This document shows, in pieces, positions 45,618 through 63,968 of a stretch of 64,000 bases of DNA. The DNA is taken from assembly GCF_003628535.1 (NCBI RefSeq), contig NZ_RBCI01000009.1, positions 1-64,000 on the forward strand. The letters are read 5' to 3'. The notes beneath the pieces were generated by a model. It saw only the letters and a program-made list of their open reading frames with translations, was not told where the DNA came from and did not search any database. Both the position numbers and the translations under genes were made by a program. Numbering within the stretch: the stretch's first letter is position 1; each line of letters begins with the position of its first letter. The DNA comes from Flavisolibacter nicotianae. GTDB taxonomy: Bacteria; Bacteroidota; Bacteroidia; Chitinophagales; Chitinophagaceae.

Positions 45618-45780
45618 CAAATTGATCGCTTTATGGTTGGCAAGTTCACTATTCAAGTGTAAAGAAAAGTTCAAAAATCGTTCAAGCAAAGAGTTTGTTC
45701 GATTATTTCGGCACGGCTCGCTGCCACGGACAATCCGGTGGTGAACCATTGCAGTGCATCACATTAACGTCAGTAACCGC

Positions 45781-48728: not shown

Positions 48729-48890
48729 GCTCTATGCGTTTAGAAATTGCGTGCAACTGTTGCGCCAGTGTTTCGGCTACAACGAATCAGGGACAAGGCA
48801 CAGACTGGAAGAAACAGATTCTAACTGAATCATGTTTAAAAACAGTCCTGGCCCAGCGCAAAAGAAAAATGCTGGAAGAAAGCGCAGCGT

Positions 48891-49499
48891 TTATTTTCCA
48901 CTACCTTCCAGGGCTACGACATTTTGCTGCTTCTTCGGTGCCAGTTCGGCGATGGCTGTTTTGGTAAAATACTGGTGCTGGTGAAGGAAATTCAATTGCT
49001 TTTCGTTCCACTCCTCCTCGGTTTTGATGAAGCCAACCGCTTTCAGTTCCTTGTAGAGATTGTTGGCTATGGGCAGAAAGCTGTCAGTGCCCAGGTAATA
49101 GAGGTCGGCATCGCAAAGAATTTGGCTGTAATGATCAAGGGGCGTTTGCGGCAGCTTTGTCGCCATGATCAGGCGGCAGATGTCGTCGATATTTTCGGCG
49201 CTGTAGCCGTGAACCGGGAGGATTTCCCGGGCAATATCACACGAAAGTTCCTCGTGGTTCTGGTAGGCTTTCAAAAAACCGCAATCGTGTAAAAGTGCCG
49301 CCGTCAGGATCATCCAGCGCTCCTCAACAGGCACGCCTTCCTTTTGCAGGAGGTAATCCGTTGCCCGGATCACGCCAAGGATATGGTCGAAATTATGGTA
49401 GGACAGTTGGGAAGGAAGCTTTTTGAATTGCGGCAGCATCGCGTTGCAGACGCTGTCGTACTGTTGCTTCGTAATGTGAGTGATCGGTGGCACGTTCAT
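48891..49499 (-). CDS. HD-domain protein (phosphohydrolase fold)
   Basis: 202 residues. An HD superfamily metal site is visible as YHNFDHILGVI (about 43-53) and LTAALLHDCGFLKAY (about 85-100). Later residues TDSFLPIANNLYKEL follow. HD proteins hydrolyse phosphate esters, including cyclic nucleotides and (p)ppGpp. It lies 18 bases downstream of the response regulator/cyclase gene and is the last gene of the signalling array, so a role in nucleotide breakdown of the same signal is attractive but only inferred. No GGDEF, EAL or HD-GYP marks are present. Confidence 0.8.
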   Translation of the reverse strand: MNVPPITHITKQQYDSVCNAMLPQFKKLPSQLSYHNFDHILGVIRATDYLLQKEGVPVEERWMILTAALLHDCGFLKAYQNHEELSCDIAREILPVHGYSAENIDDICRLIMATKLPQTPLDHYSQILCDADLYYLGTDSFLPIANNLYKELKAVGFIKTEEEWNEKQLNFLHQHQYFTKTAIAELAPKKQQNVVALEGSGK

Positions 49500-49517
49500 C
49501 GTTAGTGGTTTGTGATG

Positions 49518-50558
49518 TCAATTGAGTACTTCATAAGCAACCAGGGGCTTTTCTTTGTTTTTCACGGTAAACTCTCCCACTTTCCTGCAATTAAAAAACT
49601 CCTTTACTTTTTGATAAGATGATTCTTCAATAAAGATTTGTCCGGCGGTCGCCGCGCTTTGCAGGCGCTGGGCGGTGTTCACCACATCGCCAAGCACCGT
49701 ATAATCCAGTCGCTTCAAGGTGGCCGAACCGATGTTCCCGCTGATCATTTCCCCGCTGTTGATGCCGATCGAAACTTTCGGCATATAGCCGGCCCCGTTT
49801 TCTTCCGGTGGCAGGGCTTCGATCTGTGCCCGAAGCGTCAGGGAGGCTTCAATGGCCCGGTCGAGGTGAAAGTCGCCGCGAAAAACAGCCATCACGGCAT
49901 CCCCCATGAACTTGTCGACATGTCCGCCTTGCGCAATAATGGCTTTCACCATCACGTCAAAGTATTTGTTCAGTAGCTTCACCACCTTGTCAGCCGGTTC
50001 TTTCTCCATGATGGACGTAAAGCCACAGATATCGATAAACACCACGGTAGCGTCAATGATTTCGTTGGCCATCAGCGCCTTCTCAAATTCCTTGCTTTTC
50101 ATGAAGTGCAACACTGATTCGTCAACGTACATGCGCAAAATGTCATTTTCCTTAATCGCCTGTAATGTTTTTTTTAACTGGTTGACGTGCTGGACGGTTT
50201 TCTCTATCGTCAGTTCAAGGTCCTGGAAGTTCACCGGCTTGCAGATAAAATCGAAGGCACCACGGTTCATGGCCGTCCGGATATTGTCCATATCGCCATA
50301 AGCCGATACAATCACGGTTTTGATGAGAGGGCTTAGTTCCGTCAACTGGCTCAACAGGGTCAGGCCATCCATCTCCGGCATGTTAATGTCGCTGAGCACC
50401 ACGTCAATGTCCTTTTCCACCTCCAGTTGGGCCAGCGCCTCCTTCCCATTCAGCGCAAAAACAAACTGGTACTTGTTTTCACGGATCTGCTTGCGAAACC
50501 GCTGTTTGATCAACAACTCAAGGTCCGCTTCGTCGTCTGCCACTAGAATTTTGGTCAT
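49518..50558 (-). CDS. Response regulator fused to class III nucleotide cyclase
   Basis: 346 residues. The receiver (1-125) has the acidic pocket DDE (8-10), phospho-acceptor D57 in VLSDINMPEMD, and K107 in FICKPVN. A short helix leads to the class III cyclase (about 165-345): metal Asp residues D176 (FIDICGFTSI) and D220 (DKFMGDAVMAVF), purine-contact Lys K216, and DYTVLGDVVNTAQRL. The Lys/Asp pair favours ATP, i.e. adenylyl cyclase. The ATG overlaps the stop of the upstream response regulator by ATGA. It is the one receiver in the array with an enzymatic output, so it is likely to turn kinase input into cAMP. Confidence 0.92.
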   Translation of the reverse strand: MTKILVADDEADLELLIKQRFRKQIRENKYQFVFALNGKEALAQLEVEKDIDVVLSDINMPEMDGLTLLSQLTELSPLIKTVIVSAYGDMDNIRTAMNRGAFDFICKPVNFQDLELTIEKTVQHVNQLKKTLQAIKENDILRMYVDESVLHFMKSKEFEKALMANEIIDATVVFIDICGFTSIMEKEPADKVVKLLNKYFDVMVKAIIAQGGHVDKFMGDAVMAVFRGDFHLDRAIEASLTLRAQIEALPPEENGAGYMPKVSIGINSGEMISGNIGSATLKRLDYTVLGDVVNTAQRLQSAATAGQIFIEESSYQKVKEFFNCRKVGEFTVKNKEKPLVAYEVLN

Positions 50559-50932
50559 ACCACTGGTATTTTCAGTTTTTCCCGTAACAACGCAAAGTCA
50601 ATTGGTTTGGTGAGAAAGTCATCAGCACCCAGGGTCATTGCCTGGTGGTAATTTTCCTCGTCGCCGTAAGCCGTCACCATCATGACCACTGGCGGTGGTT
50701 CATAATGATTCTGCTTAATTTTTTGCAACAATTGCAAACCAGTCATCCCGGGCATGTTGATGTCGGAAAGGATCAACACCGCTTCGTGGCTGTGCTGGTT
50801 GAGATAGTTCAAAGCCTGTTCGCCGGAAGACGCAAACGCAAAATTCACATTTCCATTCCGGATATCTTTTCGAAAGCGCTGCTCGAACAGCGCCTGCATG
50901 TCTTTTTCATCATCTACCACTAATATCTTCAT
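50555..50932 (-). CDS. Single-domain response regulator (CheY-like)
   Basis: 125 residues, receiver only. DDE pocket at 7-9, phospho-acceptor D57 in LILSDINMPGM, and TKPID (Lys about 107) at the end of the fold. No output domain. It is coupled by ATGA to the receiver-cyclase gene and lies 33 bases downstream of the 7TM kinase. It probably shuttles phosphate from the kinases to the cyclase receiver or acts as a sink. Confidence 0.94.
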   Translation of the reverse strand: MKILVVDDEKDMQALFEQRFRKDIRNGNVNFAFASSGEQALNYLNQHSHEAVLILSDINMPGMTGLQLLQKIKQNHYEPPPVVMMVTAYGDEENYHQAMTLGADDFLTKPIDFALLREKLKIPVV

Positions 50933-50965
50933 AAACAGTCTGGCTCTTTTAGTTAGGGAATTTAG

Positions 50966-53161
50966 TTAATTTGTTTTGGCAGGTAAAATAATTTTGAACA
51001 CTGTTCCCACGCCTTCTGTTGTTTCCACCTGCAGTTCACCGCCATAAGCTTTGGTCACGATGTCGTAGCTCAGCGAAAGGCCCAGGCCCGTTCCCTCGCC
51101 GGTTGGTTTGGTGGTGAAAAAAGGCTGGTAAATTTTGTCAACCGTTTTTTGGGGAATACCGGTACCATTGTCGCTCACCGATATCTCTGTTCCCCTGCCC
51201 GTTTTTTTCGTGGCAACCGACACGATAGGTTCAAAGGTTCCGTTCAGCATCTGCTTTTTCGCATTCACGGCGTAGAACGCATTGTTGAATAAATTGAGCA
51301 ACACCCGGCCCAGTTCTTCGGGTACAACATGCACTGGGTCGATGCCGGAATCAAAATGCGTATTAATGGTGGCATTAAAATCCTTGTTACCGGCGCGGAA
51401 ACCGTGGTAACTCAAGCGCAGGTATTCGTCCGCCAAGGCATTGATATCGGTTTGTTCTTTCTCGCCGACCCTGAACCGTGAGTGTTGCAGCATGGCTTTT
51501 ACTATGGCATCGGCCCGCTGGCCGTGTTTGAGCACTTTCAACTGGTTCACCCGCAGGTCGTCGGCCAGCGGGCCAAGTGCTGTATTAGCTCCTGCCTCGT
51601 TTTTGATCTCGTCGATGATCTCGAGATTGAGCTCCGAAAAGTTGTTGATAAAGTTCAGCGGGTTTTGAATCTCATGGGCGATGCCGGCAGTGAGTTCACC
51701 CAGCGACGCCATTTTTTCTTTTTGAATCAATTGAGCCTGCGCTTCCTTCAGGTCGCGCAGGGATTGTTTCAGTTCCAGCGTTCTGGCTTCCACCTGTTGT
51801 TCCAGTTCGGCCTTTTGCCTGGCGATCAACTGGTGACGCTCCGCCTCTTTCTGCTGCTTCAACCGCTCGTTGCGAACCGCCTGCTTCAGCACTTTATTTT
51901 GCAGGTGGGCAAACCGCTGAACCAGGAGCGAGGAAAACACCGACACGATCCAGAGAATGCTGACCAGGTCTACCACGTAAGTATTTTCATTCATCCACCG
52001 GATCAGGCCGTGGGCCTGGAAAGCGGGATTGCTGGCCTGCAACAGGTTGTGCACCAGTTTATAGGTTTGGCCAACGCCCCATAAAAGCAGGGCCGGTATT
52101 GTGGCCACAATGCCGGCCGAAGCCCGGTGGGTAAAAATGAAAAGAACGGCTGTCACCAACAGCGAGTCCAGGACGAGGATATAGCTTCGCCCACCCCAGG
52201 GAAGGGTATGTACAAGCACCGGCGGCGGCAACAGATTCACAAATACATAGTTCACGAAAAAAGACAGGAGGGGCAGCACGCTCACCACGATCAACCACCT
52301 GTCCCACCGCCGGTAGTTGACCTTTGTGCGTAAGTAAGAGCGGAAGAATTGCGTAAAATAAAACAGCCCGAAACCAAAGGCCAGGTTTCCCACATAAAGA
52401 TCTACCAGCGGAAAGGACTGGAACAGGACACCGAGCGGCGAATACAGCAACGAAAAGCCAAACAGGAAAAGGGCATAATGGAGATAAAACTGCACCCGGA
52501 CAATACGGTAAAAGCGCCAATAAATGATTCCTGCAAAAAGCAAAATACCCGCGATCATTGCCGACAACATTTTGTTGGCCTGCGCCGAAAGCGGCGGGAT
52601 CGCCTGCGCCTGCAGGTACTGAACTTCGGCCATCTTCCGCGGCACCTGCACGGCCGGCTGCACCGATTTGGGCACCTGCTGCCAGTAATCATCCCGTTGG
52701 TACACCTCCACCTCCTCACCAGGGGAGAGCAACAGTGGCAGGCTGTTTCCTTTTTTTATGCCGTCTTTTTTAGTCCAGGATTGTAGCCAGCCGGTTTGCT
52801 TTTTTTCCCAGGGTAAGCTTCCTTTTTTCACAAAGCAGGTAGCGAAATTGGCGGCCGATGTCAGGGCGATATGGACAGGAGAATCGGATGCATTTCGCAG
52901 GCGGTAGTGCAGCCAGTATACACCGGGATAAAGCGTTTTGGTCCATTCGCCAAGTTTACGAAATTCCGGCTGGTAGGCACCGGAAACCACGTCGTGAAAA
53001 AGGGCCTTTTTTTCATCGTCGCGCCATACCCTGACATAAGTCTCCGGTACGGTGATGACAGGTTCCGTCTCTCCATGCAGGGGAAACGCCGGAAAGCTGT
53101 CCTGCGCCTGTAAGGTGGCAAATGAAAGCAGCAGAAAAACTATAAAAAGAAAAGCTCGCAT
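50966..53161 (-). CDS. Histidine kinase with 7TMR-DISM sensor
   Basis: 731 residues. Signal peptide about 1-19; periplasmic carbohydrate-binding-like DISMED2 domain about 25-180; seven membrane helices about 200-410; then a coiled coil with RLKQQKEAERHQ (about 425-475). The kinase core has [28 protein letters not shown], the phospho-His in AHEIQNP, N-box [18 protein letters not shown] and [16 protein letters not shown]. The sensor half matches 7TM proteins with extracellular glycan-type modules. No receiver domain is attached. It lies 38 bases downstream of the TPR kinase gene and upstream of two response regulators, the natural partners. Confidence 0.93.
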   Translation of the reverse strand: MRAFLFIVFLLLSFATLQAQDSFPAFPLHGETEPVITVPETYVRVWRDDEKKALFHDVVSGAYQPEFRKLGEWTKTLYPGVYWLHYRLRNASDSPVHIALTSAANFATCFVKKGSLPWEKKQTGWLQSWTKKDGIKKGNSLPLLLSPGEEVEVYQRDDYWQQVPKSVQPAVQVPRKMAEVQYLQAQAIPPLSAQANKMLSAMIAGILLFAGIIYWRFYRIVRVQFYLHYALFLFGFSLLYSPLGVLFQSFPLVDLYVGNLAFGFGLFYFTQFFRSYLRTKVNYRRWDRWLIVVSVLPLLSFFVNYVFVNLLPPPVLVHTLPWGGRSYILVLDSLLVTAVLFIFTHRASAGIVATIPALLLWGVGQTYKLVHNLLQASNPAFQAHGLIRWMNENTYVVDLVSILWIVSVFSSLLVQRFAHLQNKVLKQAVRNERLKQQKEAERHQLIARQKAELEQQVEARTLELKQSLRDLKEAQAQLIQKEKMASLGELTAGIAHEIQNPLNFINNFSELNLEIIDEIKNEAGANTALGPLADDLRVNQLKVLKHGQRADAIVKAMLQHSRFRVGEKEQTDINALADEYLRLSYHGFRAGNKDFNATINTHFDSGIDPVHVVPEELGRVLLNLFNNAFYAVNAKKQMLNGTFEPIVSVATKKTGRGTEISVSDNGTGIPQKTVDKIYQPFFTTKPTGEGTGLGLSLSYDIVTKAYGGELQVETTEGVGTVFKIILPAKTN

Positions 53162-53199
53162 GGGTGGTTGGCGATCGTTTTCGAAAGGAATTTACGGAA

Positions 53200-55293
53200 T
53201 TATTCGTGTTTGTCTACCGATGCCGGAGCTGGCAGTTGAACAATGAACGTGGTGCCTTCACCTTCCTGCGTCTCCACAAGCAACGCGCCGCCGTGACCTT
53301 TGGTGATGATGTCGTAGCTCAGCGAAAGGCCCAGGCCTGTTCCCTCACCGGTTGGCTTGGTGGTAAAAAAAGGCTGAAAGATCTTCGCCAGTGCTTTTTG
53401 CGGAATCCCCTTGCCGTTGTCCCTGACAATAATTTCAATTGCATTGACGCATTTTTTTGTGCTCACCCAAATCGTTGGCTCAAACCCTTCCCTGAGTTGT
53501 TTTTTCTTCTTGTAGATTTCATAAAAGGCATTGTTAAACAGGTTTAAAAGCACCCGGCCGATGTCCTGTGGTATCACGTTCACCTTGCCAATTACCGCAG
53601 CAAAATCCGTTTCGATGGTCGCATTGAACGCTTTGTCCTTTGCCCGCATACCGTGGTAACTCAGGCGCAGGTATTCATCTGCCAGTACATTGATGTCTGT
53701 CGGCTCTCTCTGGCCGGTGCTTTTGCGACTGTGCTGCAGCATGTTTTTCACAATGGCATCAGCCCGCCTTCCGTGATAGGAAACCTTTTCCAGGTTTTGC
53801 TGAATATCATCTGCCATTGCCACTGCATCCTCGCTCCTACCCTGCTGAAGCCCGTCTTTCATTTCGGTGATCAGTTCCAGGTTCAGCTCCGAAAAATTAT
53901 TGACGAAGTTGAGCGGGTTCTGGATCTCGTGGGCAATGCCGGCTGTGAGCTCACCCAGCGACGCCATCTTCTCCCGCTGGATCAACTGCGCCTGTGTCTC
54001 TTTTAACTGCACCAGGGAATCTTCGGCAATCTTGCGCTGGTTGTCTGTTTCTTCTTTTTGCTTTTTCAGCTCTTCGTACAGAGCCGCCAGCTCCTCGTTC
54101 TGCAAACGGAGGTTTTCGGCTTCCTGCTTTGTCTGTTCGATGCGGTGGGAGATCTGCAGGTTGATCACCTTTTCGGCCAGCGCATCTTTGTGCAATTCCC
54201 GCTCGATCTGGTTGTAGGTTTCCAGGCTTGCCAGCGCCTGCTCAAATTGCTCCAGCTTTTTATACGTGGTGTAATAGTGGAAATGTACATTGGCCAGCAG
54301 GTCCTGTGCCTTGATCTCATTGGCCAGCAAAAACGCTTCGTTCAAAAATACAAGCGCCGTCTGCCGCGCAGGAAAAGAACAAAGAGAAAGTTGCGAAAGA
54401 AAAAGTAGCGCTTCGGCCTGCCCCCGCTTGTCGTTGATGTCTTTGCGGATCTGCAAACTTTCGTTGGCGGTAGCAAGCGCCTTTTCTGTCCTGCCCTGCT
54501 TGTGATATACCTGGCTCAAATGAAACAGGGTGTTGGCAATGCCTTTTTTATCGCTGGTACACTGGCAAATACCAAGACTCTGTGTGCACATTTCAATAGC
54601 CTGCTCGTAAGCGCCGATCTTGTAGTAAGTAAATCCAATGTTATCGAGGCATCCTGCTTCGCCCCACTGGTCGCCGCTCGACCGGCGGATTTGCAGGCTT
54701 TGCTGGTAATAAGCAATCGCCTGCTGGTAGTCGCCGGTCTCAAAATAGATCTGCCCGATAAGGTTCAGTGCATAAGACTCAGCTACCCAGTGTCCAATTT
54801 CCCTGGCTGTTTTCAATCCCTCGAGCAGGTAGTGGATGGCTTTCTCGTAACTGCCCATGTATTTGTACGTCACGCCGAGATGGTAACAGGCCAGCGAAGC
54901 CTCTTCCAGGTAGTTGGTCCGGGTACAGATGTCCAGCGCCTTGAACAGGTTTTCCAGTGAGGCATCGAAATTGCCAAAGCTGCGGTGGATAATCCCGAAA
55001 TATTCATGCACTTCCGACAAGCCCCGGTTGTCGCCCATTTCAGCAAACAACACAAAGGCTTCGTCCAAGACGGCCTTTGCTTCCTTGTGTTTTGAGAGGC
55101 GGATGAGACCGAAACCGTAGGTCCGCAATCCCTCCGCCAAACCTTTTTTATAACCGGCTTGTCGTGACAGTTCGGCGGCTTCCTTTCCCATAGAAAAGGC
55201 CTTCCCCGAATCATTCACACGGATCTCCCATGCCCTGGCATTCAGGTCGTCAATTCTTTTCTGCAACTCGAACAAGGTGCTTTCGGTTTCCAT
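53200..55293 (-). CDS. Cytoplasmic TPR histidine kinase
   Basis: 697 residues, no signal peptide or membrane helices. About nine tetratricopeptide repeats fill 30-370 (for example YQQAIAYYQQSLQIRRSSG and YEQAIEMCTQSLGIC), then a coiled coil about 380-445. Kinase core with the usual [22 protein letters not shown]-box NNAFYEIYKKKK, DNGKGIPQ and [15 protein letters not shown]. TPRs normally bind peptides or other proteins, so this kinase probably senses an intracellular protein state. 15 bases after the VOC gene. Confidence 0.93.
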   Translation of the reverse strand: METESTLFELQKRIDDLNARAWEIRVNDSGKAFSMGKEAAELSRQAGYKKGLAEGLRTYGFGLIRLSKHKEAKAVLDEAFVLFAEMGDNRGLSEVHEYFGIIHRSFGNFDASLENLFKALDICTRTNYLEEASLACYHLGVTYKYMGSYEKAIHYLLEGLKTAREIGHWVAESYALNLIGQIYFETGDYQQAIAYYQQSLQIRRSSGDQWGEAGCLDNIGFTYYKIGAYEQAIEMCTQSLGICQCTSDKKGIANTLFHLSQVYHKQGRTEKALATANESLQIRKDINDKRGQAEALLFLSQLSLCSFPARQTALVFLNEAFLLANEIKAQDLLANVHFHYYTTYKKLEQFEQALASLETYNQIERELHKDALAEKVINLQISHRIEQTKQEAENLRLQNEELAALYEELKKQKEETDNQRKIAEDSLVQLKETQAQLIQREKMASLGELTAGIAHEIQNPLNFVNNFSELNLELITEMKDGLQQGRSEDAVAMADDIQQNLEKVSYHGRRADAIVKNMLQHSRKSTGQREPTDINVLADEYLRLSYHGMRAKDKAFNATIETDFAAVIGKVNVIPQDIGRVLLNLFNNAFYEIYKKKKQLREGFEPTIWVSTKKCVNAIEIIVRDNGKGIPQKALAKIFQPFFTTKPTGEGTGLGLSLSYDIITKGHGGALLVETQEGEGTTFIVQLPAPASVDKHE

Positions 55294-55308
55294 GCGAAAA
55301 CGCTTGTT

Positions 55309-55701
55309 TTACTTCATGTAAAACTCCCATTGAATGCGGTCGGGATCTTTGAAAGCCACGTAAAGCTTTTGCAGGGTCTCGTCTTTTTTCACACCGGTGT
55401 TTTCCACGCCGGCGTCGGCAAGGCCTTTGGCAAAGCGGTGAAGTTCGTCTTCCGTTTCACAGACCAGGGCAACGTGGTCTAGACCAATGTTGAAAGGCGT
55501 AAATACGGCGTCGGGGTTCCCGTTTGTTTCGGCTTTTTTAAACGCAACGATCACCTGTCCTGCGACAAAGGCGATCAGGTCGGGACTGTCAAGCGCCAGC
55601 GGCAAACCAAGGACGTTCTGATAAAAGTCTTTGGTCACCGAAAAATTTTTGCAGCGTAATGCAATGTGGTGAATGCCGGGAGTTTGCGGTTGGATAGCCA
55701 T
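55309..55701 (-). CDS. VOC family (glyoxalase-like) protein
   Basis: 130 residues forming one vicinal-oxygen-chelate module pair: HIALRCKNFSVTKDFYQNVLGLPL at the start, LDHVALVCETEDELHRF in the middle and VAFKDPDRIQWEFY at the end. Metal ligands are plausibly the His of HHIALR and DHVAL and the Glu of WEF. The family includes glyoxalases, dioxygenases and antibiotic-binding proteins; no subfamily can be chosen. Sits inside the kinase array with 15 bases to the next kinase and 83 to the previous gene. Confidence 0.82.
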   Translation of the reverse strand: MAIQPQTPGIHHIALRCKNFSVTKDFYQNVLGLPLALDSPDLIAFVAGQVIVAFKKAETNGNPDAVFTPFNIGLDHVALVCETEDELHRFAKGLADAGVENTGVKKDETLQKLYVAFKDPDRIQWEFYMK

Positions 55702-55784
55702 GGTTATAATTTTTTAATAGTGGCTGCTTTCAACAGGTACCCAGGTCCATAAAAATAGATGATGATTTTTTCTCCTGCAACGTA

Positions 55785-56189
55785 TCAACCGGTCACCGCC
55801 CGCGGATCAAAATGGTTTTCCTGCTCGATAATCCGGCTCTCTTCATTTACCGTAAAGCGGTCGGCTACGCGAAGTGTTACCGCAGGCGCTCTCAGTGAAA
55901 TTTCCGCCTCGCTGATGATACCGGACAAATCTTCCTGGATGTAATGACCAAGAATGTTCACCGTTATATCTTTCAACGCGGGCCCGAGTGGTAGCCACCA
56001 CTTTTCATAGACGTCTTTCCCGCTGGTCGGAACCAGCACGCCGCCAGGATCGAACGGTGTACGGATGGATGCCGTTTCCGCACAGGGGATGGTTTCAAAT
56101 TTTGCGTTGCGCAAGGACTCAAAATAGTCCTCTGCTACCTTTTTCAATTGCGCTACCCGGGTCGCGGCCGATAGTGATTCAAGATTCAT
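55785..56189 (-). CDS. SnoaL-like / NTF2-fold small protein
   Basis: 134 residues from ATG 56189, chosen for the strong AAGGAGG ribosome site right before it. The fold signal is a cystatin/NTF2-like cone (helix-rich start AATRVAQLKKVAEDYFESL, then beta strands ending ITVNILGHYIQEDL, EAEISLRAPAVTLRVADRFTVNEES). SnoaL-like proteins are small ligand-binding or isomerase enzymes. No catalytic residues can be assigned. It lies 28 bases downstream of a kinase gene. Confidence 0.68.
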   Translation of the reverse strand: MNLESLSAATRVAQLKKVAEDYFESLRNAKFETIPCAETASIRTPFDPGGVLVPTSGKDVYEKWWLPLGPALKDITVNILGHYIQEDLSGIISEAEISLRAPAVTLRVADRFTVNEESRIIEQENHFDPRAVTG

Positions 56190-56217
56190 AAATCCTCCTT
56201 TTGTTTTAATGAATCGA

Positions 56218-58191
56218 TCAGTGCGTTGTTTGGGAGTTGTCAAGTGGAAGCCGGATTACGAACGCCGCACCTTCCCCTTCTTCCGATTCCACCTTTAGTT
56301 CGCCGCCGTGGGCCTTCACCATATCGTAGCTGAGTGACAGGCCCAGGCCCAGGCCCGTTCCCTCTCCCGGCGGCTTGGTGGTGAAGAAAGGCTGGAAGAC
56401 TTTTTCTTTTGCATTTTCCGGAATGCCGGTGCCGTTGTCTTTGACCACGATGACAACGGAGTTTCTTTCTTTCCTTGTGCAAACATTCACTACCGGTCCA
56501 TAGGGTCCATTCAACTGCCTCTTCTTTGCACTGACAGCATAAAAGGCGTTGTTGAAAAGATTGAGCAGCACTCTTCCGATTTCCTGCGGTACCACGTCTA
56601 TTTTATCCAGGGTTTTGTCAAACTGCGTTTCCACCACCGCATCGAACGATTTGTCTCTTACCCGCATTCCGTGGTAAGAAAGTCGCAGGTAGTCTTCCGC
56701 CAGGGTATTGATATCTGTGGACTGCTTCTCTCCCTTTGACGTACGGCTATGTTCCAGCATGCCTTTCACGATGGCATCGGCCCGTCTGCCATGGTGCAGG
56801 ATTTTTTGCAGGTTTTCCGTTGCGGCATTGATTCCCTGGAGAACGGCGTCTTTTTTACCAGAACCGATTTCTTCTTTTACCTCGGCCAAAATTTCAATAT
56901 TGATATCCGAAAAGTTGTTGATAAAATTCAGTGGATTTTGTATTTCGTGGGCAATGCCCGCAGTCAGTTCACCCAAGGAAGCCATCTTCTCCCGTTGAAT
57001 CAACTGAGCTTGTGTCGACTTTAACTCCGCATAGGCCCGCTCTATTTTTGCTTTGGCTTTTTGCTTTTGGCGGTTGCCCTGCCATAGCACAACGGAGAGA
57101 AAAAGCAGAACCAGTAAGCCGGCAATCAGTGCATATATCTGTATCCTGCTTTTGTACTTCTCCTGGCCCGCCTTCATTTCTTCCTCCTTTAGCTTTGCGT
57201 TGAAGGCGACCTGCTGTATTTCGCGGTCTTTTTCGGTGTTGAAAATGGTGTCTTTTATCGCGTAACTACGCTCGGTATATTTAAGAGCGCTGTCTTTGTT
57301 CCCAATTGCTTTGTAGGCCTGTGCCAGGTTGCTGACTGCCTCCAGAAGATTTTTAAACTCTGATTGACTCTTCCATCCCTGTTCGACAATTTTTGCATAA
57401 TGAATCGTCGAATCGTATTGCCGCGCATTTTTGAAAAGCGTTGACATGCCGCTGTATATCTGTAATGTATCCCATGGAATTCCGTTTGGCACACATAAGG
57501 CCAGTGCTTCGCGATATTTTTCCAACGCCGGTTTATATTCCCCTTTCCTGTTTAGAATGGTTGCCAGTAGGTAAATAGGAAACTCCCACGTTGTGCCATT
57601 AAAAAGTTCATTCTGTGCAATGGATTTCTTCGTGAAAAAAAGAGCGGAGTCCAGTTTGTTCATTAACACGTACGTCTGCCCAATCTCTGCCAGTAACAAA
57701 GGAAACCAACGATGGCCGGGGAAAACAATTGACCCGTTAACCTTGTAGTCTTCGGCTATCTGCAAGCCAAGAAACGCATGGGACAGGGCTTTGCGATAGT
57801 CGCCTATTTCGCGATAAATGCCTTGCAACATGGCATGTGCATTGGCCATGCCGGCATGATCCCTACTGTCTTCGTAAATCGCCAAAGCATCCAGATTGGC
57901 CTGTATCGCCTGATTGAAATTGCTCTGCTGACCATAACAGTTTTGAAGAATCAAAAGGCAATCTGCTTCTCCTTTCTTATACCCAATTCTCCTGGCCAGT
58001 GACAGGCCTCTCTGCGCATACCAAGTAAGCGAATCCAACGGTTGCCCGTAACTTAATTGGACAAAAGCGTTGACTTCGGCACTATCGCCCTTGTGCTGGT
58101 TGATAAGGGCCCTCAGATCGCCTTCATTCTGCTGCGCATTGGCCGCATGAATGCCAAGCAAGAAAAGCACGATGATCAGCCTGTTTTTCAT
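56218..58191 (-). CDS. TPR histidine kinase with membrane anchor
   Basis: 657 residues. Signal peptide about 1-19, periplasmic TPR region about 40-340, one membrane helix about 350-372 ([19 protein letters not shown]), short coiled coil, then kinase core with [33 protein letters not shown] and DNGTGIPE. The G2 box reads [16 protein letters not shown], two residues longer than in the other four kinases here (see findings). The ATG 58191 overlaps the stop of the HAMP kinase by four bases. Confidence 0.93.
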
Positions 58192-60116
58192 TGACTATTT
58201 GTTGGCTTCTGTTCCTGAAAAGGTAACTGCACGATAAACGCTGTCCCCTCGCCTTCTTTGGTCTCTACGATAATTTCGCCCTTGTGTCCATTGGTAATGA
58301 TGTCGTAGCTGAGTGAAAGGCCTAGCCCTGTTCCCTCTCCGGCCGGTTTGGTGGTAAAGAAAGGCTGGAAGATTTTATCGATAATTTGCTGGGGGATACC
58401 GGTACCGTTGTCGCGGATGCATAACGCAACCCTGTCGCTTTCTTTTTTGGTGGTTATGGTGACAGTGGGTTCGAACGTTCCATTGAGCAGTTTCTTCTTT
58501 TCACTCACTGAATAAAAGGCGTTGTTAAACAGATTGAGCAGCACCCGTCCAATGTCTTCCGGCACAACGTTCAGTTTACCGATCTCCGGATCGAGGTTTT
58601 TTTCGATGACGGAACGAAAACTTTTGTTCTTGATTTGCATCTCTTCATAACTGGCATGGAGATAGGTTTCGATGAGCTCATTGAGATCGGTTTGCTCTTT
58701 TATTCCTTTTGATGCCCGGCTGTGCTTCAACATGCTCGATACGATGCTGGATGCTTTTTTCCCGTGCTGCACCATTTTCTGAAAATTTCCAGTGATGTCA
58801 TCCAGGAGGCTGTTGACGTTTTCCTTGTCGATTTCCACTTTGTTGATCTCCTCCCGCAACTCGTCGGCAAGATCTTCGCTCACTTCGGAAAAATTGACAA
58901 TAAAATTCAGCGGGTTTTTGATTTCGTGGGCAATGCCCGCGGTGAGCTCGCCCAAAGACGCCATTTTCTCCCGCTGGATCAGTTGCGCCTGCGTGGCTTT
59001 CAGGTCGTTGAGCGATTGCTGCAACTGCTTTGTCCGGGTTGCGACTTGAATTTCGAGGGTCTGCGCATAATTGGTCAATTCATCCTGCGCCTTTTTCATG
59101 CTTTGCGTCATGTGGTTGAAGTTCTCGGTCAGCAGTCCGATTTCGTCCCGCAATCCCACTTCCACATGCGTATCCAGTTGGCCGGCGTTCACCTTCTCCA
59201 CGCCTTCCAGCAGCCGTTCCAGCGGCCGGGTAAGGCTGGCCCGCAGCATCAACGGCATCAGGGTAACGATGAGCAGGGCCACCGACGGAACGATGATCAC
59301 GAGTCGGGTCAATCCCTGCTGCTGCGCCATTTGGGCAGCGAGATCGGCCGAGTAATCGGGTGGGTAAAATGTCATGGTGATGATGCAAAGAATCGTTGCC
59401 GCCACGATGAAAGAAAAGCCGGTGATCTTGGTTTGAAAACCCGCAGGCACAGCTGCCGTCACAATATAAAGAACGATGGAGGCAAGATTGCCAAGCCACA
59501 CAAACGAAAAATACGACCACGAACCCGGAACGGTAAGAAAGCCAAAGACAATGGAGATCGTGCTTCCGATCACATAGCAGCCGTTGATACCGGCATAGAT
59601 ATAATGCGCTTTGGAGGCTTTCGGATCGGTGCCATGCAGGTAGCGTGCCTTGCGCAGGGCCAGCGCAATCATCCACAGGGTAAAAAACGCACTAAAGACA
59701 AAAGCCGACATCCGGGTATAGGCAAAATTTCCCGTGCCGAAGAATTCGTTCCAGACAGCAAAGGCGAATTCTGCAAGGAAGAAAACAAGACTGATAAGGA
59801 ATACTTTTTTCCTTTCGCGAGGGAAGGGATCTGCCAGGAAGCAATAAACGTATTGGGTGTGGCAGATGAGCGTAAATGCAAGTCCCGGGATGAGGATGAA
59901 CGTGGCAGAAAGTTTTGGCAATAAAAGTCCTTCGTATTCCGGCGGAAGGCTGTAACGGACCATATTTTCCACCTGCCAGCAAAACAACGAGAAATAAAAA
60001 CCAAGGAGCCATTTCTTCGCATTGACGGGACGTTTCAGCCGCACAAGATGAACAACCATTCCTGCCGCCGTTAGCGCCAGAATCAGGGACATGACTGAAT
60101 GCGTGTGAAGCATCAT
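58188..60116 (-). CDS. Multi-pass membrane histidine kinase with HAMP domain
   Basis: 642 residues. About eight membrane helices up to residue 290, then HAMP about 291-345 (SLTRPLERLLEGVEKVNAGQL), coiled coil about 345-385, kinase core with phospho-His H397 in [30 protein letters not shown] and GEGTGLGLS. It lacks an extracellular ligand domain of appreciable size, so it may sense membrane or ion state. It lies 14 bases after the kinase at 60131 and overlaps the TPR kinase start. Confidence 0.93.
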   Translation of the reverse strand: MMLHTHSVMSLILALTAAGMVVHLVRLKRPVNAKKWLLGFYFSLFCWQVENMVRYSLPPEYEGLLLPKLSATFILIPGLAFTLICHTQYVYCFLADPFPRERKKVFLISLVFFLAEFAFAVWNEFFGTGNFAYTRMSAFVFSAFFTLWMIALALRKARYLHGTDPKASKAHYIYAGINGCYVIGSTISIVFGFLTVPGSWSYFSFVWLGNLASIVLYIVTAAVPAGFQTKITGFSFIVAATILCIITMTFYPPDYSADLAAQMAQQQGLTRLVIIVPSVALLIVTLMPLMLRASLTRPLERLLEGVEKVNAGQLDTHVEVGLRDEIGLLTENFNHMTQSMKKAQDELTNYAQTLEIQVATRTKQLQQSLNDLKATQAQLIQREKMASLGELTAGIAHEIKNPLNFIVNFSEVSEDLADELREEINKVEIDKENVNSLLDDITGNFQKMVQHGKKASSIVSSMLKHSRASKGIKEQTDLNELIETYLHASYEEMQIKNKSFRSVIEKNLDPEIGKLNVVPEDIGRVLLNLFNNAFYSVSEKKKLLNGTFEPTVTITTKKESDRVALCIRDNGTGIPQQIIDKIFQPFFTTKPAGEGTGLGLSLSYDIITNGHKGEIIVETKEGEGTAFIVQLPFQEQKPTNSQ

Positions 60117-60130
60117 TTTCCGGGAGCGTT

Positions 60131-61489
60131 TTAAAGTGGTATCGATACGATAAATTCACTTCCCTGCCCTTCTTTTGTTTCCACCTTCAGTTCACCGCCG
60201 TGGCCCTTGGTTACAATGTCGTAGCTTAACGACAACCCAAGACCAGTTCCCTCACCCGTTGGTTTTGTGGTAAAAAAAGGCTGGTAAATTTTTTCTTTTA
60301 CTTTTTCGGCAATGCCCATTCCATTGTCTTTGACACAGATCTCCAGTCTGCCGCCTCTTTTCCGGGTGCTTACTTGCACCGTCGGCTCGTAATCACTGCC
60401 TTTATTTTTCTTTTTCTCCGTTACGGCATAAAAGGCATTGCTGAACAGGTTGAGCAAGACCCGCCCGATCTCTTCGCCGTTGATGGTAACCTGTTTCAGC
60501 GCCGGGTCGAAATGGGTTTCGATGATCACGTTGAACATGCCGTCTTTTGCGCGGATGCCGTGATAGCTTAACCGCAGGTATTCTTCTACAAAAGCGTTAA
60601 TGTCAACCGGCTGTTTTTGTCCCGACGTTTTGCGGCTGTGTTGCAGCATGGCCTTTACAATCGAATCAGCCCTGTTGCCGTGTTCGTAAATTTTTTTCTG
60701 GTTCTCAACAAGGTCATGCAACAACAGCGACAAGGAGTCTTTTTCTTTGTTGCCAATCGCCATTTGGTTGATAGACTGCCCGATTTCTGCAGCCAGTTCT
60801 ACATTCAGCTCAGAAAAATTATTGATAAAATTTAATGGGTTTTTGATTTCATGGGCAATGCCCGCGGTGAGCTCGCCGAGCGACGCCATCTTCTCCCGCT
60901 GGATCAGCTGTGCCTGGGTGGCCTTCAGGTCTTGCAGCGCATGCAGCAGTTCTTCTTTTTGTTGTTGCAATTCGGCCGTCCGTTCGGCTACCAGCGCTTC
61001 CAGTTCGGCTTTGCGTGCCGTTACGATGCGGTGCTGTTCTTCTTCCTGGAGTCTTTTTCGGCGCTCTTCTTTCAGGGCTTTCAGTTGCTTTCGTGACAGG
61101 ATGAGCAGGGCGATCAGCCAGGTCGCGGCTACGGGATAAACATAGGCTTCGTATTGATACAAGGTGGGGCGGCCAGCCGGCCACAAAACAAGGAGGCTAT
61201 TTGAAACGATAGAGATGACAACAAGGGGCAAAACCGCATAGAGTGTCATGCGCACGGGAACAAACCGGGGTTCCCGGAACGAGAAGATAAGGATACCAAC
61301 CAATGCCAGGTGCCAGATCCATTGCGTGGCCGTTTCAATGCGCAGACCGTTTGTCAGAAAAAACAATACGGCGGACGCAAGCATCCCCCATTTCAACCGC
61401 CGCTCCCAGAGAGGGTAAGGCGAAAAGGTTTGCAGAATTTTCCGCAAACGCATCAGGAGAAGAAATGTTAACAGGGCTTCTAAAAACAT
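60131..61489 (-). CDS. Membrane histidine kinase, short sensor
   Basis: 452 residues. Four or so membrane helices in 1-130 (for example WGMLASAVLFFLTNGL and YAVLPLVVISIVSNSLLVL), a long coiled coil about 135-195, phospho-His H213 in AHEIKNPLNF, SNAFYAVTEKKK, DNGMGIAE and [10 protein letters not shown]. No periplasmic domain. It is separated from the kinase at 61710 by 220 bases, the widest gap in the array, where a second promoter could lie. Confidence 0.92.
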   Translation of the reverse strand: MFLEALLTFLLLMRLRKILQTFSPYPLWERRLKWGMLASAVLFFLTNGLRIETATQWIWHLALVGILIFSFREPRFVPVRMTLYAVLPLVVISIVSNSLLVLWPAGRPTLYQYEAYVYPVAATWLIALLILSRKQLKALKEERRKRLQEEEQHRIVTARKAELEALVAERTAELQQQKEELLHALQDLKATQAQLIQREKMASLGELTAGIAHEIKNPLNFINNFSELNVELAAEIGQSINQMAIGNKEKDSLSLLLHDLVENQKKIYEHGNRADSIVKAMLQHSRKTSGQKQPVDINAFVEEYLRLSYHGIRAKDGMFNVIIETHFDPALKQVTINGEEIGRVLLNLFSNAFYAVTEKKKNKGSDYEPTVQVSTRKRGGRLEICVKDNGMGIAEKVKEKIYQPFFTTKPTGEGTGLGLSLSYDIVTKGHGGELKVETKEGQGSEFIVSIPL

Positions 61490-61709
61490 GATCGTATTCC
61501 TGAAAATTTAGGTTGGTTTCTCGAGCCGGATGTAAAGGTGATTTTGTTTTTAAGGGCAGAATGTATCATGTTGAATCGCTGCGAACGACCTTTTCTCACC
61601 TTCCATACCGTACAGCGAGAGAATAAAACAAGCAGGCATGGTTGCAATCAAAAAAACGCCTGGCAGATACGGAGGCGGCATTCGCCGCATGGCTTTTTTC
61701 CCACCAGCA

Positions 61710-62762
61710 TTATCCCTTTTTTCGCGTTGTTTTGTTCAACACGATCGTAAACTCGGTTTCCTCGCCTTCAATGCTTTTCACTTTCAGTTCGCCGCCATGG
61801 GCTTTCACGATGTCGTAGCTCAGCGACAGTCCCAGGCCCGTTCCGGAACCGGCCGGCTTGGTGGTGAAAAAGGGCTGAAAAATTTTATCCATGGCGGCGG
61901 CTGGTATGCCAACACCATTGTCCTTCACGCGGATCTTGACCTGGTTGTCGTCAAGCCGGGTCATGACCTGGATCGTGGGCTCATAATCGTCGCCGGCTTT
62001 TTTCTTCCGTTCGGTCACAGCATAAAAAGCGTTGTTAAAAAGATTGAGCAAGACCCGCCCAATGTCCTGGGGAATCACGTCAATCTTCCCAATACGTTCG
62101 TCATAGCGGGTCTGCATGATTGCGTTGAATGCCTTGTCTTTTGCCCGCAGCCCATGGTAACTCAGGCGCAGGTATTCATCCACCAGGGAATTAAGATCGG
62201 TTGGCAGCGTTTGCCCGTCGCTTTTGCGGCTGTGCAGCAACATTCCTTTGACAATGGAGTCTGCCCGCTTGCCGTGATGGTTGATTTTTTGGAGGTTTTG
62301 TTTTACTTCTTCCATGATCACACCGGCTTCGTCCACGCGGCCATCCTGCAGGCACTCTTCAATTTCTTTCAGCAGGTCTTCTGTCAGCTCCGAAAAATTA
62401 TTGACGAAGTTGAGCGGGTTCTGGATCTCGTGGGCAATGCCGGCAGTGAGTTCACCCAGCGACGCCATCTTTTCCGCCTGGATCAGTTGCGCCTGGGCCG
62501 CTTTCAGGTCCATCAGGGCCCTGGTCAGGTCAATATTGGCTTGCTCTACCGCAAAGGTTTTCTTTTGCAATTCTTCGATGGTTTCTTCCAGTAAAATGGA
62601 AAGGGATTTTTTCTCCTTTTCGTATCGTCCCAGTTTGAATTCGGTTACGACCAGCGCTTTGTCGGCTTCCTTCAATGCCTGGTCCAGCGCCGCCTTTTCA
62701 GAGTCGGTCAGGGCCGTTAGAGCAGTGATGGCATCCACCATTTTCTTTAGTGCTTTGTGCAT
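61710..62762 (-). CDS. Soluble coiled-coil histidine kinase
   Basis: 350 residues, no membrane helix. Helical coiled coil about 1-90 (EKAALDQALKEADKAL, LLEETIEELQKKTF), phospho-His H111 in [11 protein letters not shown]-box NNAFYAVTERKKK, DNGVGIPA, GSGTGLGLS. No known sensor domain. It follows the FIST gene directly (42 bases), so FIST may be its sensor in trans, as known for other FIST gene pairs. Confidence 0.92.
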   Translation of the reverse strand: MHKALKKMVDAITALTALTDSEKAALDQALKEADKALVVTEFKLGRYEKEKKSLSILLEETIEELQKKTFAVEQANIDLTRALMDLKAAQAQLIQAEKMASLGELTAGIAHEIQNPLNFVNNFSELTEDLLKEIEECLQDGRVDEAGVIMEEVKQNLQKINHHGKRADSIVKGMLLHSRKSDGQTLPTDLNSLVDEYLRLSYHGLRAKDKAFNAIMQTRYDERIGKIDVIPQDIGRVLLNLFNNAFYAVTERKKKAGDDYEPTIQVMTRLDDNQVKIRVKDNGVGIPAAAMDKIFQPFFTTKPAGSGTGLGLSLSYDIVKAHGGELKVKSIEGEETEFTIVLNKTTRKKG

Positions 62763-62804
62763 CCGGTAGCTGTTTTATCGCTTGGGTTTTATCGTCCTTT
62801 CTAT

Positions 62805-63968
62805 TTATGCCGTCGCCGGTTTTTCATCGATTTCCTTTAGCGCCACAAGGCAGCAGGTATTGTTGTGAAACTCGTGTTTGCCATAGGCTGTTTTACCAAT
62901 TTCGCCGTAGCTGAAAAAACCAATCAGCGGTGAGCCCCAAACCTTTTTCAATCCTTCAATTTCGTCGCTGACCATAGGCCCGAGAGTAAGGTGACGGGCC
63001 ACGCAGGAAAACATCACGAGTGCATCGGCCTGCGGCAATTGCTGCGATTTGATTTCCTTCGATTGTTCAATCACCTCGTCCACCACGTCAAAATCCGGCG
63101 GAAGTGCAAACCGGAACCGGGAGCCCTGCGGCACATTGCCGCTGAATTTCAAACAACGCTCCTCGAAGTTCGCAAACATTGTCGTACGCACGACGGGGTC
63201 GCCGTTTGGTCGTTGCATCAGGATCGGGAAATAAGATCCCATTTTCGTCAGCACCTCGTTTGCGGCCGTGTTGGTTTCGGCGCTGACGCCCAAAAATTTC
63301 ATCACCACGTCCAGCGCCGGTTCGTCGTCGATGGTGTATACAACACTTCCTTCGCTCCGGGTGATGGTGCGTTCGGTGCCTACCGGTTTCCATCCGCTGG
63401 TGGCGTGTCCGCGCAGCGAAATTTTATCCGCATCAATGATTGCCGCCACAATGGCTTTGTCGCTGGCACTGTCGTTGGTAAAAACGCAAGGTCCCGACCA
63501 GGTCATATCGTCGCCGGCCATGCCACCGAAGATGGCAGTTGCTTCGCCGGCCGTGTCCTCTATCCCCCGCACGATCTGTTCGCCATCTGTATACAAACCA
63601 CTGTACGAAACCAAAAAAGCCGGGTTGGCAAACGTCTGCTTGCCTGCCAGGCCGATTTGCCGGGCCAGTGATTTCAGGTCGTTTTCACCGATGTTTTCAA
63701 AAACGATCCGGAAGTAACGATCATCAAGATCGAGCAGCATGATCACGACCGAACCTTCTGCGACATCGCCATCGATAAATTCGCCGGCGGTGGTTGCACC
63801 AAAAATGCGAATGCCCATCGCATCCAGCAAACGGCAGATTTCCTCGCGGTTTTGCCGGATGGACAAAAACACCAGCGCCAGCGTAGGACGAAACCCGTCG
63901 GACGTGGTTTGCTCCAGTTCCGCCTTTAGCTGGTCAACCGACTGGCCTTTGATGGTTTTTGCTTTCAT
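62805..63968 (-). CDS. FIST domain signal-sensing protein
   Basis: 387 residues, cytoplasmic. FIST_N about 25-215 (PTLALVFLSIRQNREEICRLLDAMGIRIFGATTAGEF is its start) and FIST_C about 225-370 (EPALDVVMKFLGVS, then ALVMFSCVARHLTLGP and PLIGFFSYGEIG). FIST proteins are proposed sensors of small molecules such as amino acids and often pair with kinases or cyclases. It is the first gene of the leftward array and ends 42 bases before a kinase with no sensor of its own. The ATG is 63968, 32 bases from the window edge; upstream genes may extend the operon. Confidence 0.92.
   Translation of the reverse strand: MKAKTIKGQSVDQLKAELEQTTSDGFRPTLALVFLSIRQNREEICRLLDAMGIRIFGATTAGEFIDGDVAEGSVVIMLLDLDDRYFRIVFENIGENDLKSLARQIGLAGKQTFANPAFLVSYSGLYTDGEQIVRGIEDTAGEATAIFGGMAGDDMTWSGPCVFTNDSASDKAIVAAIIDADKISLRGHATSGWKPVGTERTITRSEGSVVYTIDDEPALDVVMKFLGVSAETNTAANEVLTKMGSYFPILMQRPNGDPVVRTTMFANFEERCLKFSGNVPQGSRFRFALPPDFDVVDEVIEQSKEIKSQQLPQADALVMFSCVARHLTLGPMVSDEIEGLKKVWGSPLIGFFSYGEIGKTAYGKHEFHNNTCCLVALKEIDEKPATA

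What the first reader, a model, noticed from the sequence alone, without database searches (positions are those of the whole stretch)
48891..63968. Fifteen-kb signalling array: FIST sensor, five paralogous kinases, two receivers, a cyclase and an HD protein
Seen: five histidine kinases with near-identical cores but five different sensor halves (coiled coil, short membrane, HAMP/multi-pass, periplasmic TPR, cytoplasmic TPR) plus a 7TMR-DISM kinase, all without receiver domains, transcribed leftward with short gaps or overlaps. Counting the DISM kinase there are six kinases in all. Only two receivers follow, one alone and one fused to a class III cyclase. Known: orphan kinases of this kind occur in Bacteroidota and cyanobacteria, and FIST proteins pair with signalling enzymes. 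Inference: many inputs feed one cAMP output in a single operon; this arrangement is not a system I know by name.
Basis: partly seen in the sequence, partly recalled or inferred. Interest (0 to 1): 0.75.

Follow-up and report, generated by a model that had tools for sequence, protein, structure and literature searches.

The report
Kinase array feeding one cAMP switch
A bacterium strings seven sister sensor kinases together with a gas-sensor-like helper protein and a single cyclic-AMP-making enzyme, a layout that recurs across the Bacteroidota with one to seventeen kinases and looks like a shared wire carrying many signals to one switch.

Summary
The genes are real; the inference (many inputs, one cAMP output) is well supported by comparison but untested. 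A seventh kinase lies just outside the window, and two small genes (SnoaL-like, VOC) sit inside the array. Cores are 54-66% identical. Of 71 related REC-cyclase loci with enough upstream DNA, 65 have a kinase of this family directly upstream. In 147 genomes of the family, all 31 with the REC-cyclase have these kinases, 113 have neither, 3 fragmented drafts have kinases only. Copies run from 1 to 17 per genome, the cyclase is single; one genome has two FIST genes, 17 kinases, REC, REC-cyclase and YitT over about 53 kb. In 7 of 12 kinase-only genomes examined, the array ends in REC-SpoIIE instead: the output is swappable. Nine of 13 sensorless short kinases directly follow a FIST gene (6 of 201 longer ones), as in NosP/NosK. 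Window and 80 related cyclases keep adenylate-cyclase residues. Downstream: HD, HD-YitT, YitT, or the Pycsar effector PycTM. Best reading: a convergent 'sensor bus' onto a phosphorylation-controlled adenylate cyclase. New variant of a known kind.

The parts
62805..63968 (-). FIST protein (FIST_N + FIST_C), likely auxiliary sensor for the next kinase
   Evidence: Pfam FIST 117 bits, FIST_C 78 bits; NCBIfam NosP 51.6 bits over residues 11-357, far below its cut-off of 450; only FIST found in the genome
61710..62762 (-). HK1, 350-aa kinase with no sensor domain or TM found
   Evidence: HisKA + HATPase_c; no hydrophobic stretch; 9 of 13 such short kinases directly follow a FIST gene
60131..61489 (-). 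HK2, short membrane kinase
   Evidence: HisKA + HATPase_c; one TM over a simple hydropathy threshold
58188..60116 (-). HK3, multi-pass membrane + HAMP kinase
   Evidence: HAMP, HisKA, HATPase_c; eight hydrophobic stretches
56218..58191 (-). HK4, TPR + TM kinase
   Evidence: TPR_12, HATPase_c; HisKA 26.1 bits, just under cut-off 26.9; one TM
55785..56186 (-).
   Evidence: SnoaL_2 19.2 bits, below cut-off 27; SnoaL_3 is fused to 2 of 42 array kinases scanned
55309..55701 (-).
   Evidence: Glyoxalase 63.3 bits
53200..55293 (-). HK5, cytoplasmic TPR kinase
   Evidence: TPR_12 110 bits, HisKA, HATPase_c; no TM
50966..53161 (-). HK6, 7TMR-DISMED2 kinase
   Evidence: 7TMR-DISMED2 24.3 bits, HisKA, HATPase_c
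50555..50932 (-). single-domain receiver, D57/T87/K109
   Evidence: Response_reg 94.8 bits; residues; a REC is adjacent to REC-cyclase in 65 of 71 loci
49518..50558 (-). receiver fused to class III adenylate cyclase; REC D57/S85/K107; cyclase D176, K216, D220, T287, N294, R298
   Evidence: Response_reg 82.6 and Guanylate_cyc 81.7 bits; residues conserved
48891..49499 (-). HD-domain hydrolase, candidate cyclic-nucleotide phosphodiesterase or nucleotide hydrolase
   Evidence: HD 31.3 bits; H71, D72, H82, D130 invariant in the 26 aligned sequences; AF2 pLDDT 96; YpgQ-like fold

Best explanation
A convergent two-component pathway. Seven orphan kinases here (HK0-HK6), plus nine relatives elsewhere in the genome, each read a different input (7TM-DISM, HAMP, TPR, or a separate FIST protein acting on sensorless HK1) and all phosphorylate the same small receiver and the related receiver of one adenylate cyclase. 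Phosphorylation changes cAMP synthesis. The single receiver probably buffers or gates the phosphate, somewhat as SdrG does in Sphingomonas. The HD protein may hydrolyse the cyclic nucleotide or a product of it. Shown by sequence: gene order, co-occurrence, intact catalytic residues, shared docking surfaces. Inferred: phosphotransfer, direction of control, the FIST-HK1 contact, the HD substrate, and what cAMP then does.
For: Co-occurrence in 147 family genomes (G000-G146): REC-cyclase in 31, kinases in 34, all 31 with both, 113 neither (Fisher 9.7e-29, not corrected for relatedness). Eight genera hold one species with both and another with neither (g1, g4, g8, g21, g23, g25, g34, g35, genus labels of unmatched genomes). 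1 to 17 kinases per genome (at most 18 scored) against one cyclase (G012's second hit is a 101-aa fragment). Kinase directly upstream in 65 of 71 and REC adjacent in 65 of 71 loci. 17-kinase array with 2 FIST in G027. Helix 1 around the phospho-His averages 94% conserved against 69-73% elsewhere in 186 cores, and 94% in 184 kinases picked mainly by the ATPase half. Both receivers share LxxQxFRxxIR in helix 1. Arrays with REC-SpoIIE in 7 of 12 kinase-only genomes examined: inputs stay, output swaps. D176, K216, D220, T287, N294 in the window and all 80 relatives.
Against: L050, L055, L057, L093, L095 and L113 have no kinase as immediate upstream neighbour; L073, L089, L093, L103, L122 and L125 have no called adjacent REC; in G260 a kinase sits between REC and REC-cyclase. 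Three family genomes have kinases without REC-cyclase; one (G074) is explained by a contig end at the REC gene, two (G038, G059) are not. In the wider phylum 33 of 57 kinase genomes lack a REC-cyclase hit; of 12 examined, 5 show no partner in the stretch fetched. Two 220-nt gaps weaken the single-operon claim. 33 of 74 loci have neither HD, YitT nor PycTM in the next two genes. HD occurs in 91 of 147 genomes, so it is not specific to this pathway. No biochemistry.
Confidence: 0.72

Rival explanations
1. A cluster of tandem duplicates whose members have drifted to separate partners elsewhere; adjacency reflects duplication only.
For: In a tree of 79 cores the nearest neighbour is from the same genome in 44 cases, shuffled mean 9.1, so arrays grow by duplication.
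Against: Docking helix is 94% conserved; in the family sample every genome without REC-cyclase also lacks these kinases, dispersed copies included, apart from three drafts.
Confidence: 0.1
2. The single receiver is the real target (sink, inhibitor or relay), and the cyclase is mainly controlled in another way or through a phosphotransferase not identified here, as PhyT does in Sphingomonas.
For: A REC is adjacent in 65 of 71 loci; precedent Pak-SdrG-PhyT-PhyR (PMC5898713, passages).
Against: L103, L122, L125 have kinase then REC-cyclase with no called REC between; the cyclase's receiver keeps S85 and K107 in all 81 and D57 in 80, one gap. I made no search for a phosphotransferase.
Confidence: 0.25
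3. An anti-phage system of Pycsar type driven by kinases.
For: The window REC-cyclase matches PADLOC PycC at 1.8e-21, and the neighbour of the L104 REC-cyclase matches PycTM at 1.1e-28; PycTM follows in 16 of 74 loci; patchy occurrence within genera.
Against: Window and all 80 relatives, 16 PycTM-linked ones included, keep the K216/T287 pair of adenylate cyclases; the window has HD, not PycTM; sensor domains found are TPR, DISM, GAF and the like. I take the PycC match as generic class III similarity, which was not tested with a control cyclase.
Confidence: 0.08

Closest known systems
Alphaproteobacterial general stress response, Sphingomonas melonis Pak-SdrG-PhyT-PhyR (PMC5898713, passages read)
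   Same: Several kinases feed one single-domain receiver and one output receiver whose receivers resemble each other.
   Different: Paks are HWE/HisKA_2 kinases scattered in the genome and PhyR acts through a sigma-factor-like domain; here HisKA kinases in a gene array and the output is a cyclase or SpoIIE phosphatase; a PhyT counterpart was not searched for.
NosP-NosK-NosR nitric-oxide systems (PMC12570481, passages read)
   Same: A FIST protein encoded beside a kinase with no recognised sensor domain; REC-output in the operon.
   Different: FIST here scores 51.6 against a NosP cut-off of 450; output is a cyclase, not a c-di-GMP domain; many other kinases join.
Rhizobial plasmid GAF-kinase - REC - REC-cyclase triads
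   Same: Same order, same receiver pair, kinases 50-52% identical to HK1.
   Different: One kinase, no FIST or HD annotated at the two loci read.
Kinase array - REC - REC-SpoIIE elsewhere in the phylum
   Same: Same kinase family and receivers, FIST in some.
   Different: Output is a SpoIIE-type phosphatase.
Cyanobacterial adenylate cyclase CyaC (architecture recalled; cyclase domains of that kind 1wc0/1wc1 appear)
   Same: Receiver-controlled class III adenylate cyclase.
   Different: Kinase and receivers in one polypeptide there (recalled); separate and many-to-one here.
Pycsar (PMC11224242, passages read)
   Same: Class III-fold cyclase; PycTM effector beside it in 16 of 74 relatives.
   Different: Adenylate-type residues; two-component control; window lacks PycTM.

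Membership tests
Two-component system | HisKA/HATPase kinase with phospho-His and REC with Asp, Thr/Ser, Lys | tested here: met
   HK4 and HK0 HisKA 0.8 and 1.2 bits under the Pfam cut-off but H-box intact
Two-component system | phosphotransfer from kinase to receiver | not testable with these tools
   needs purified proteins
Class III adenylate cyclase | two metal Asp, adenine-selecting Lys and Thr/Asp, transition-state Asn and Arg (roles recalled) | tested here: met
   D176, K216, D220, T287, N294, R298; all 81 sequences for the first five, 80 of 81 for R298; aligned to CyaB 3r5g
NosP/NosK nitric-oxide system | FIST protein scoring above the NosP equivalog cut-off | tested here: not met
   51.6 bits against 450
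NosP/NosK nitric-oxide system | FIST gene next to a kinase without sensor domain | tested here: met
   window FIST-HK1; 9 of 13 short kinases against 6 of 201 longer ones
NosP/NosK nitric-oxide system | heme and NO binding | not testable with these tools
   no experiment; ligand residues not examined
Alphaproteobacterial general stress response | HWE/HisKA_2 kinases and PhyR sigma-like domain | tested here: not met
   Pfam gives HisKA in 42 of 42 array kinases scanned; the output domain is a cyclase
Pycsar | PycTM or PycTIR effector beside the cyclase | tested here: not met
   window has HD; 16 of 74 relatives have PycTM; TIR not searched in relatives
Pycsar | pyrimidine-selecting pocket | tested here: inconclusive
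   adenylate K/T pair in all 81, but the AnPycC pocket also holds a Lys (K104) per PMC11224242
Class I cyclic-nucleotide phosphodiesterase (PDEase_I) | match over the Pfam cut-off | tested here: not met
   13.5 bits against 24.8; PDE folds at TMq 0.54-0.69 but E of 0.04 or more

The most novel reading that the evidence does not exclude
A phylum-wide, unnamed 'sensor bus': one receiver pair serves as a common socket for an expandable array of up to 17 or more orphan kinases and FIST helpers, the socket's output domain is exchanged between adenylate cyclase and SpoIIE phosphatase, and in many flavobacterial and some other loci the cAMP made is read by a PycTM membrane protein, so that a Pycsar effector works in ordinary two-component signalling and defence scans mislabel it.
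Probability: 0.4. Interest if true: 0.85.

Novelty: new variant of a known kind. Interest (0 to 1): 0.7.

Why it matters
It would say what a large class of receiver-less Bacteroidota kinases talks to, give a natural system for studying how many kinases share one receiver without losing information, place cAMP at the centre of sensing in a phylum where little is known of it (recalled), and warn that PycTM plus a class III cyclase is not by itself a defence system. Arrays of up to 17 kinases on one strand are, to my knowledge (recalled), beyond the described many-to-one cases.

Tried and rejected
Promoter scan by a strict recalled Bacteroidetes consensus: one hit per strand in the window and none in the cluster, uninformative. 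Solved-structure sequence search of HD: nothing significant, one hit at E 0.56; of FIST: one weak match, 1vki at 9.8e-05 over 74 residues. HD as PDEase_I: rejected as a membership claim, kept as a guess. HD as a pathway-specific marker: rejected, 91 of 147 genomes have it. PycTM as strictly tied to REC-cyclase: rejected, 2 of 6 phylum genomes with this PycTM have it adjacent (G249, G298), G260 has both apart, G196, G318 and G366 have no REC-cyclase hit. FIST as tied only to these kinases: rejected, 46 of 147 family genomes have FIST and 27 of the 46 have no K* hit. Literature: nothing describing this arrangement was seen in the listings of searches (open-licence library only). Passages of three papers were read and one outline with abstract. 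The second structure job and the viral fold library were not used. No search for Hpt or other phosphotransferases, nor for cAMP receptors, was made.

Genes in scripts come from a simple longest-ORF picker of mine (90 aa or more), which can hide a short gene under an opposite ORF (probably so for REC in L073 and G198). In one search part of the conserved stretch was in the search motif; one search repeats it with ATPase-half selection, though it still needs a loose H-box (8 of 194 proteins dropped for lacking one, 2 more for being too near an end). My note says 13 kinase-only genomes; the right figure is 12.
Full report
What is there. The window is G000:C69:1-64000 of a 6.09-Mb genome in 70 contigs, 100% complete. 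The nearest named relatives of its REC-cyclase are Chitinophagaceae and other Bacteroidota, so it is probably one of the Chitinophagaceae (inference). The array genes lie on the minus strand. In transcription order: HK0 (C69:66473-64188, outside the window), FIST, HK1, HK2, HK3, HK4, a SnoaL_2-like gene, a VOC gene, HK5, HK6, REC, REC-cyclase, HD. HK0 and HK6 carry 7TMR-DISM parts. Upstream of HK0 lies a divergent gene that looks like purK (recalled from its first residues).

The kinase family. A search of the own genome with HK1 gives 16 matches from 1.2e-225 to 4.2e-91 and then drops to 7.3e-15: seven here, three in a row on contig C2 and six scattered. The genome has one REC-cyclase only, the one here. 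I call the family K*. Helix 1 of the DHp domain, which carries the phospho-His and docks the receiver (general knowledge), averages 94% conservation over 184 K* picked mainly by their ATPase half; in the 186 cores it is 94% against 69% and 73% for the rest. The two receivers share LxxQxFRxxIR in helix 1 and the active-site surroundings while differing at many other positions. So all K* should dock on the same surface and both receivers offer it (inference).

Conserved order. Of 80 REC-cyclase loci, 71 have at least 1.5 kb upstream: REC is adjacent in 65 of 71 and a K* is directly upstream in 65 of 71. With 16 K* in some 5,000 genes (my estimate), a chance neighbour would be expected well under 1% of the time. 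Of 52 loci with 9.8 kb or more upstream, contiguous K* number 0 in 3, 1 in 19, 2 in 12, 3 in 11, 4 in 4, 5 in 3, and FIST is in the run in 7. These are floors, as the stretch ends at about 10 kb. Arrays in whole genomes can be larger: G027 has two FIST genes, 17 K* with two other genes among them, then REC, REC-cyclase and YitT, about 53 kb on one strand; G086 has nine kinases of the family before REC and REC-cyclase, its contig starting inside the first; G260 has eight kinases, two FIST, REC and REC-cyclase, with one kinase between the last two.

Presence and absence. In 147 family genomes (G000-G146), REC-cyclase (E up to 1e-40) is in 31 and K* (E up to 1e-50) in 34. All 31 are among the 34; 113 have neither. 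The three K*-only genomes are drafts of 400, 350 and 290 contigs; in one, G074, the K* contig ends at a REC gene. Fisher's test gives 9.7e-29, but relatives are not independent; stronger is that in eight genera one sampled species has both and another neither (g1, g4, g8, g21, g23, g25, g34, g35), including two species of the window's own genus that lack both. In two further genera (g38, g59) one species has both and the other K* only. K* copies range from 1 to 17 while REC-cyclase is single (one extra 101-aa fragment in G012; in the phylum sample G264 has two). Losing or gaining the cyclase goes with losing or gaining every K*, as a many-to-one pathway predicts.

The output can be swapped. 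In 296 genomes of the phylum, REC-cyclase (E up to 1e-60) is in 24 and K* in 57; all 24 are among the 57 (Fisher 5.9e-20). Within the window's class the figures are 19 and 20. I fetched one stretch each of 12 of the 33 K*-only genomes: in 7 (G198, G250, G254, G391, G401, G406, G431) the kinases run into REC-SpoIIE, with a called separate REC in six; in 5 (G147, G185, G261, G306, G382) no partner lies in the stretch, two of which (G185, G261) run off it. Three of the 12 (G198, G382, G391) have FIST before a short K*, as here. On plasmids, rhizobia carry GAF-kinase, REC, REC-cyclase with 4-nt overlaps (two loci read, kinases 50-52% identical to HK1), Nostoc a kinase, REC and a second REC protein, Runella and Parabacteroides kinases with REC-SpoIIE. 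The socket is thus wider than the cyclase, and perhaps older (inference).

FIST and HK1. Of 214 complete K*, 13 are 370 aa or shorter; 9 of 13 directly follow a FIST gene, against 6 of 201 longer ones (Fisher 1.5e-9). Of 22 ends of FIST runs, 15 are followed by a K*, the other 7 by another kind of gene. In Burkholderia the FIST protein NosP controls a neighbouring kinase that has no recognised sensor domain, in an NO-dependent way (PMC12570481, passages). FIST-HK1 has the same layout. It is not a NosP by the NCBIfam cut-off (51.6 of 450 bits), and heme was not tested. FIST is not confined to these arrays: 27 of 46 family genomes with FIST have no K* hit.

Other inputs. Of 42 array kinases from six genomes (those complete in one stretch and under 2,000 aa), 24 match TPR_12, 8 DUF6377, and two each GAF, Reg_prop, 7TMR-DISMED2 and SnoaL_3 (the tool shows 25 of 43 families). 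Small ligand-binding folds recur as separate genes: SnoaL and VOC here, EthD twice and SCO4226-like once among the array genes scanned. SnoaL both free and fused suggests a trans sensor (inference).

The cyclase. It aligns with CyaB (3r5g) and photoactivated adenylate cyclases. D176 and D220, the Lys-Thr pair K216 and T287, and N294 are present in the window and all 80 relatives, R298 in 80 of 81, receiver D57 in 80 of 81 with one gap. Product: most likely cAMP.

Downstream. Of 74 loci with 1.5 kb or more downstream, the next two same-strand genes include HD fused to YitT in 15, PycTM in 15, PycTM with HD in 1, HD in 7, YitT with HD in 2, YitT in 1, none of these in 33 (families). The PycTM loci are mostly Flavobacteriaceae by title, with Membranihabitans, Portibacter and a MAG titled Bacteroidales among them. 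In the own genome another class III cyclase on contig C64 is followed by an HD-YitT gene, a second link between HD and cyclases. The window HD has an HD-superfamily fold, nearest 2pjq and YpgQ (best E 7.1e-4), with mammalian-type phosphodiesterases at TM-scores of 0.54-0.69 but E of 0.04 or more. I rate a cyclic-nucleotide phosphodiesterase at about 0.45. PADLOC scores the window cyclase as PycC and the L104 neighbour as PycTM, yet the cyclases look adenylate-type; only 2 of 6 phylum genomes with this PycTM have it next to REC-cyclase.

How it most likely works. Signals act on N-terminal halves or on FIST; the kinase autophosphorylates; phosphate goes to REC and REC-cyclase; cyclase activity changes; HD and, in relatives, YitT or PycTM act on or answer to the nucleotide. 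The nearest working precedent that I read is Sphingomonas, where seven Paks phosphorylate SdrG and PhyR, whose receivers are alike, and PhyT moves phosphate from one to the other (PMC5898713, passages). I did not search for such a third protein here. Kinase arrays grow largely by duplication: the nearest neighbour is in the same genome for 44 of 79 cores, shuffled mean 9.1.

Verdict. A real, conserved many-kinase module with a swappable output; new variant of a known kind. The claim that it is unnamed rests on the listings of ten searches of an open-licence library and would need a wider search.

Noticed in passing
G027 C1 (L133-L135), L110, L069, G118 (L136-L137), G260 (L168-L169): Giant single kinases of this family: 3,254 aa (G027), 3,320 aa and cut by the stretch end (L110, beginning with a SnoaL-like stretch by eye), 2,608, 2,709, 3,081 and 2,891 aa.
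   Followed up: partly
G000 contig C64 (L142:4328-7864): A different class III cyclase gene (669 aa) is directly followed by an HD-YitT fusion: a second cyclase-HD pairing in the same genome.
   Followed up: partly
L104:11500-12060, L103:11076-11633, L097, L108, L112 and others: PycTM gene right after REC-cyclase; defence scans may call this Pycsar.
   Followed up: partly
L136:4407-7061 (G118): Between FIST genes, one protein joins a class III cyclase domain, an FGE-sulfatase domain and a hydrolase domain.
   Followed up: no
G260 (L168-L170 joined) 291-2419 and 48298-54424; L108:2221-3726: Tandem runs of about 230-260-aa proteins sharing a 'Y(A/G)(I/L)GEI' stretch lie beside these arrays.
   Followed up: no
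L135:15236-15598, L136:11465-11788, L133:10903-11172: Small EthD and SCO4226-like genes sit between FIST or kinase genes.
   Followed up: partly
window 47469-48728 (-): Next gene downstream of HD is a strong erythromycin-esterase-family protein (398 bits); 163-nt gap, probably a separate unit.
   Followed up: no
window 44472-45749 (-): YkuD transpeptidase domain and a TonB C-terminal domain in one protein.
   Followed up: no
G264 C92 and C95: One genome has two full-length REC-cyclases, each with a K* just upstream.
   Followed up: no
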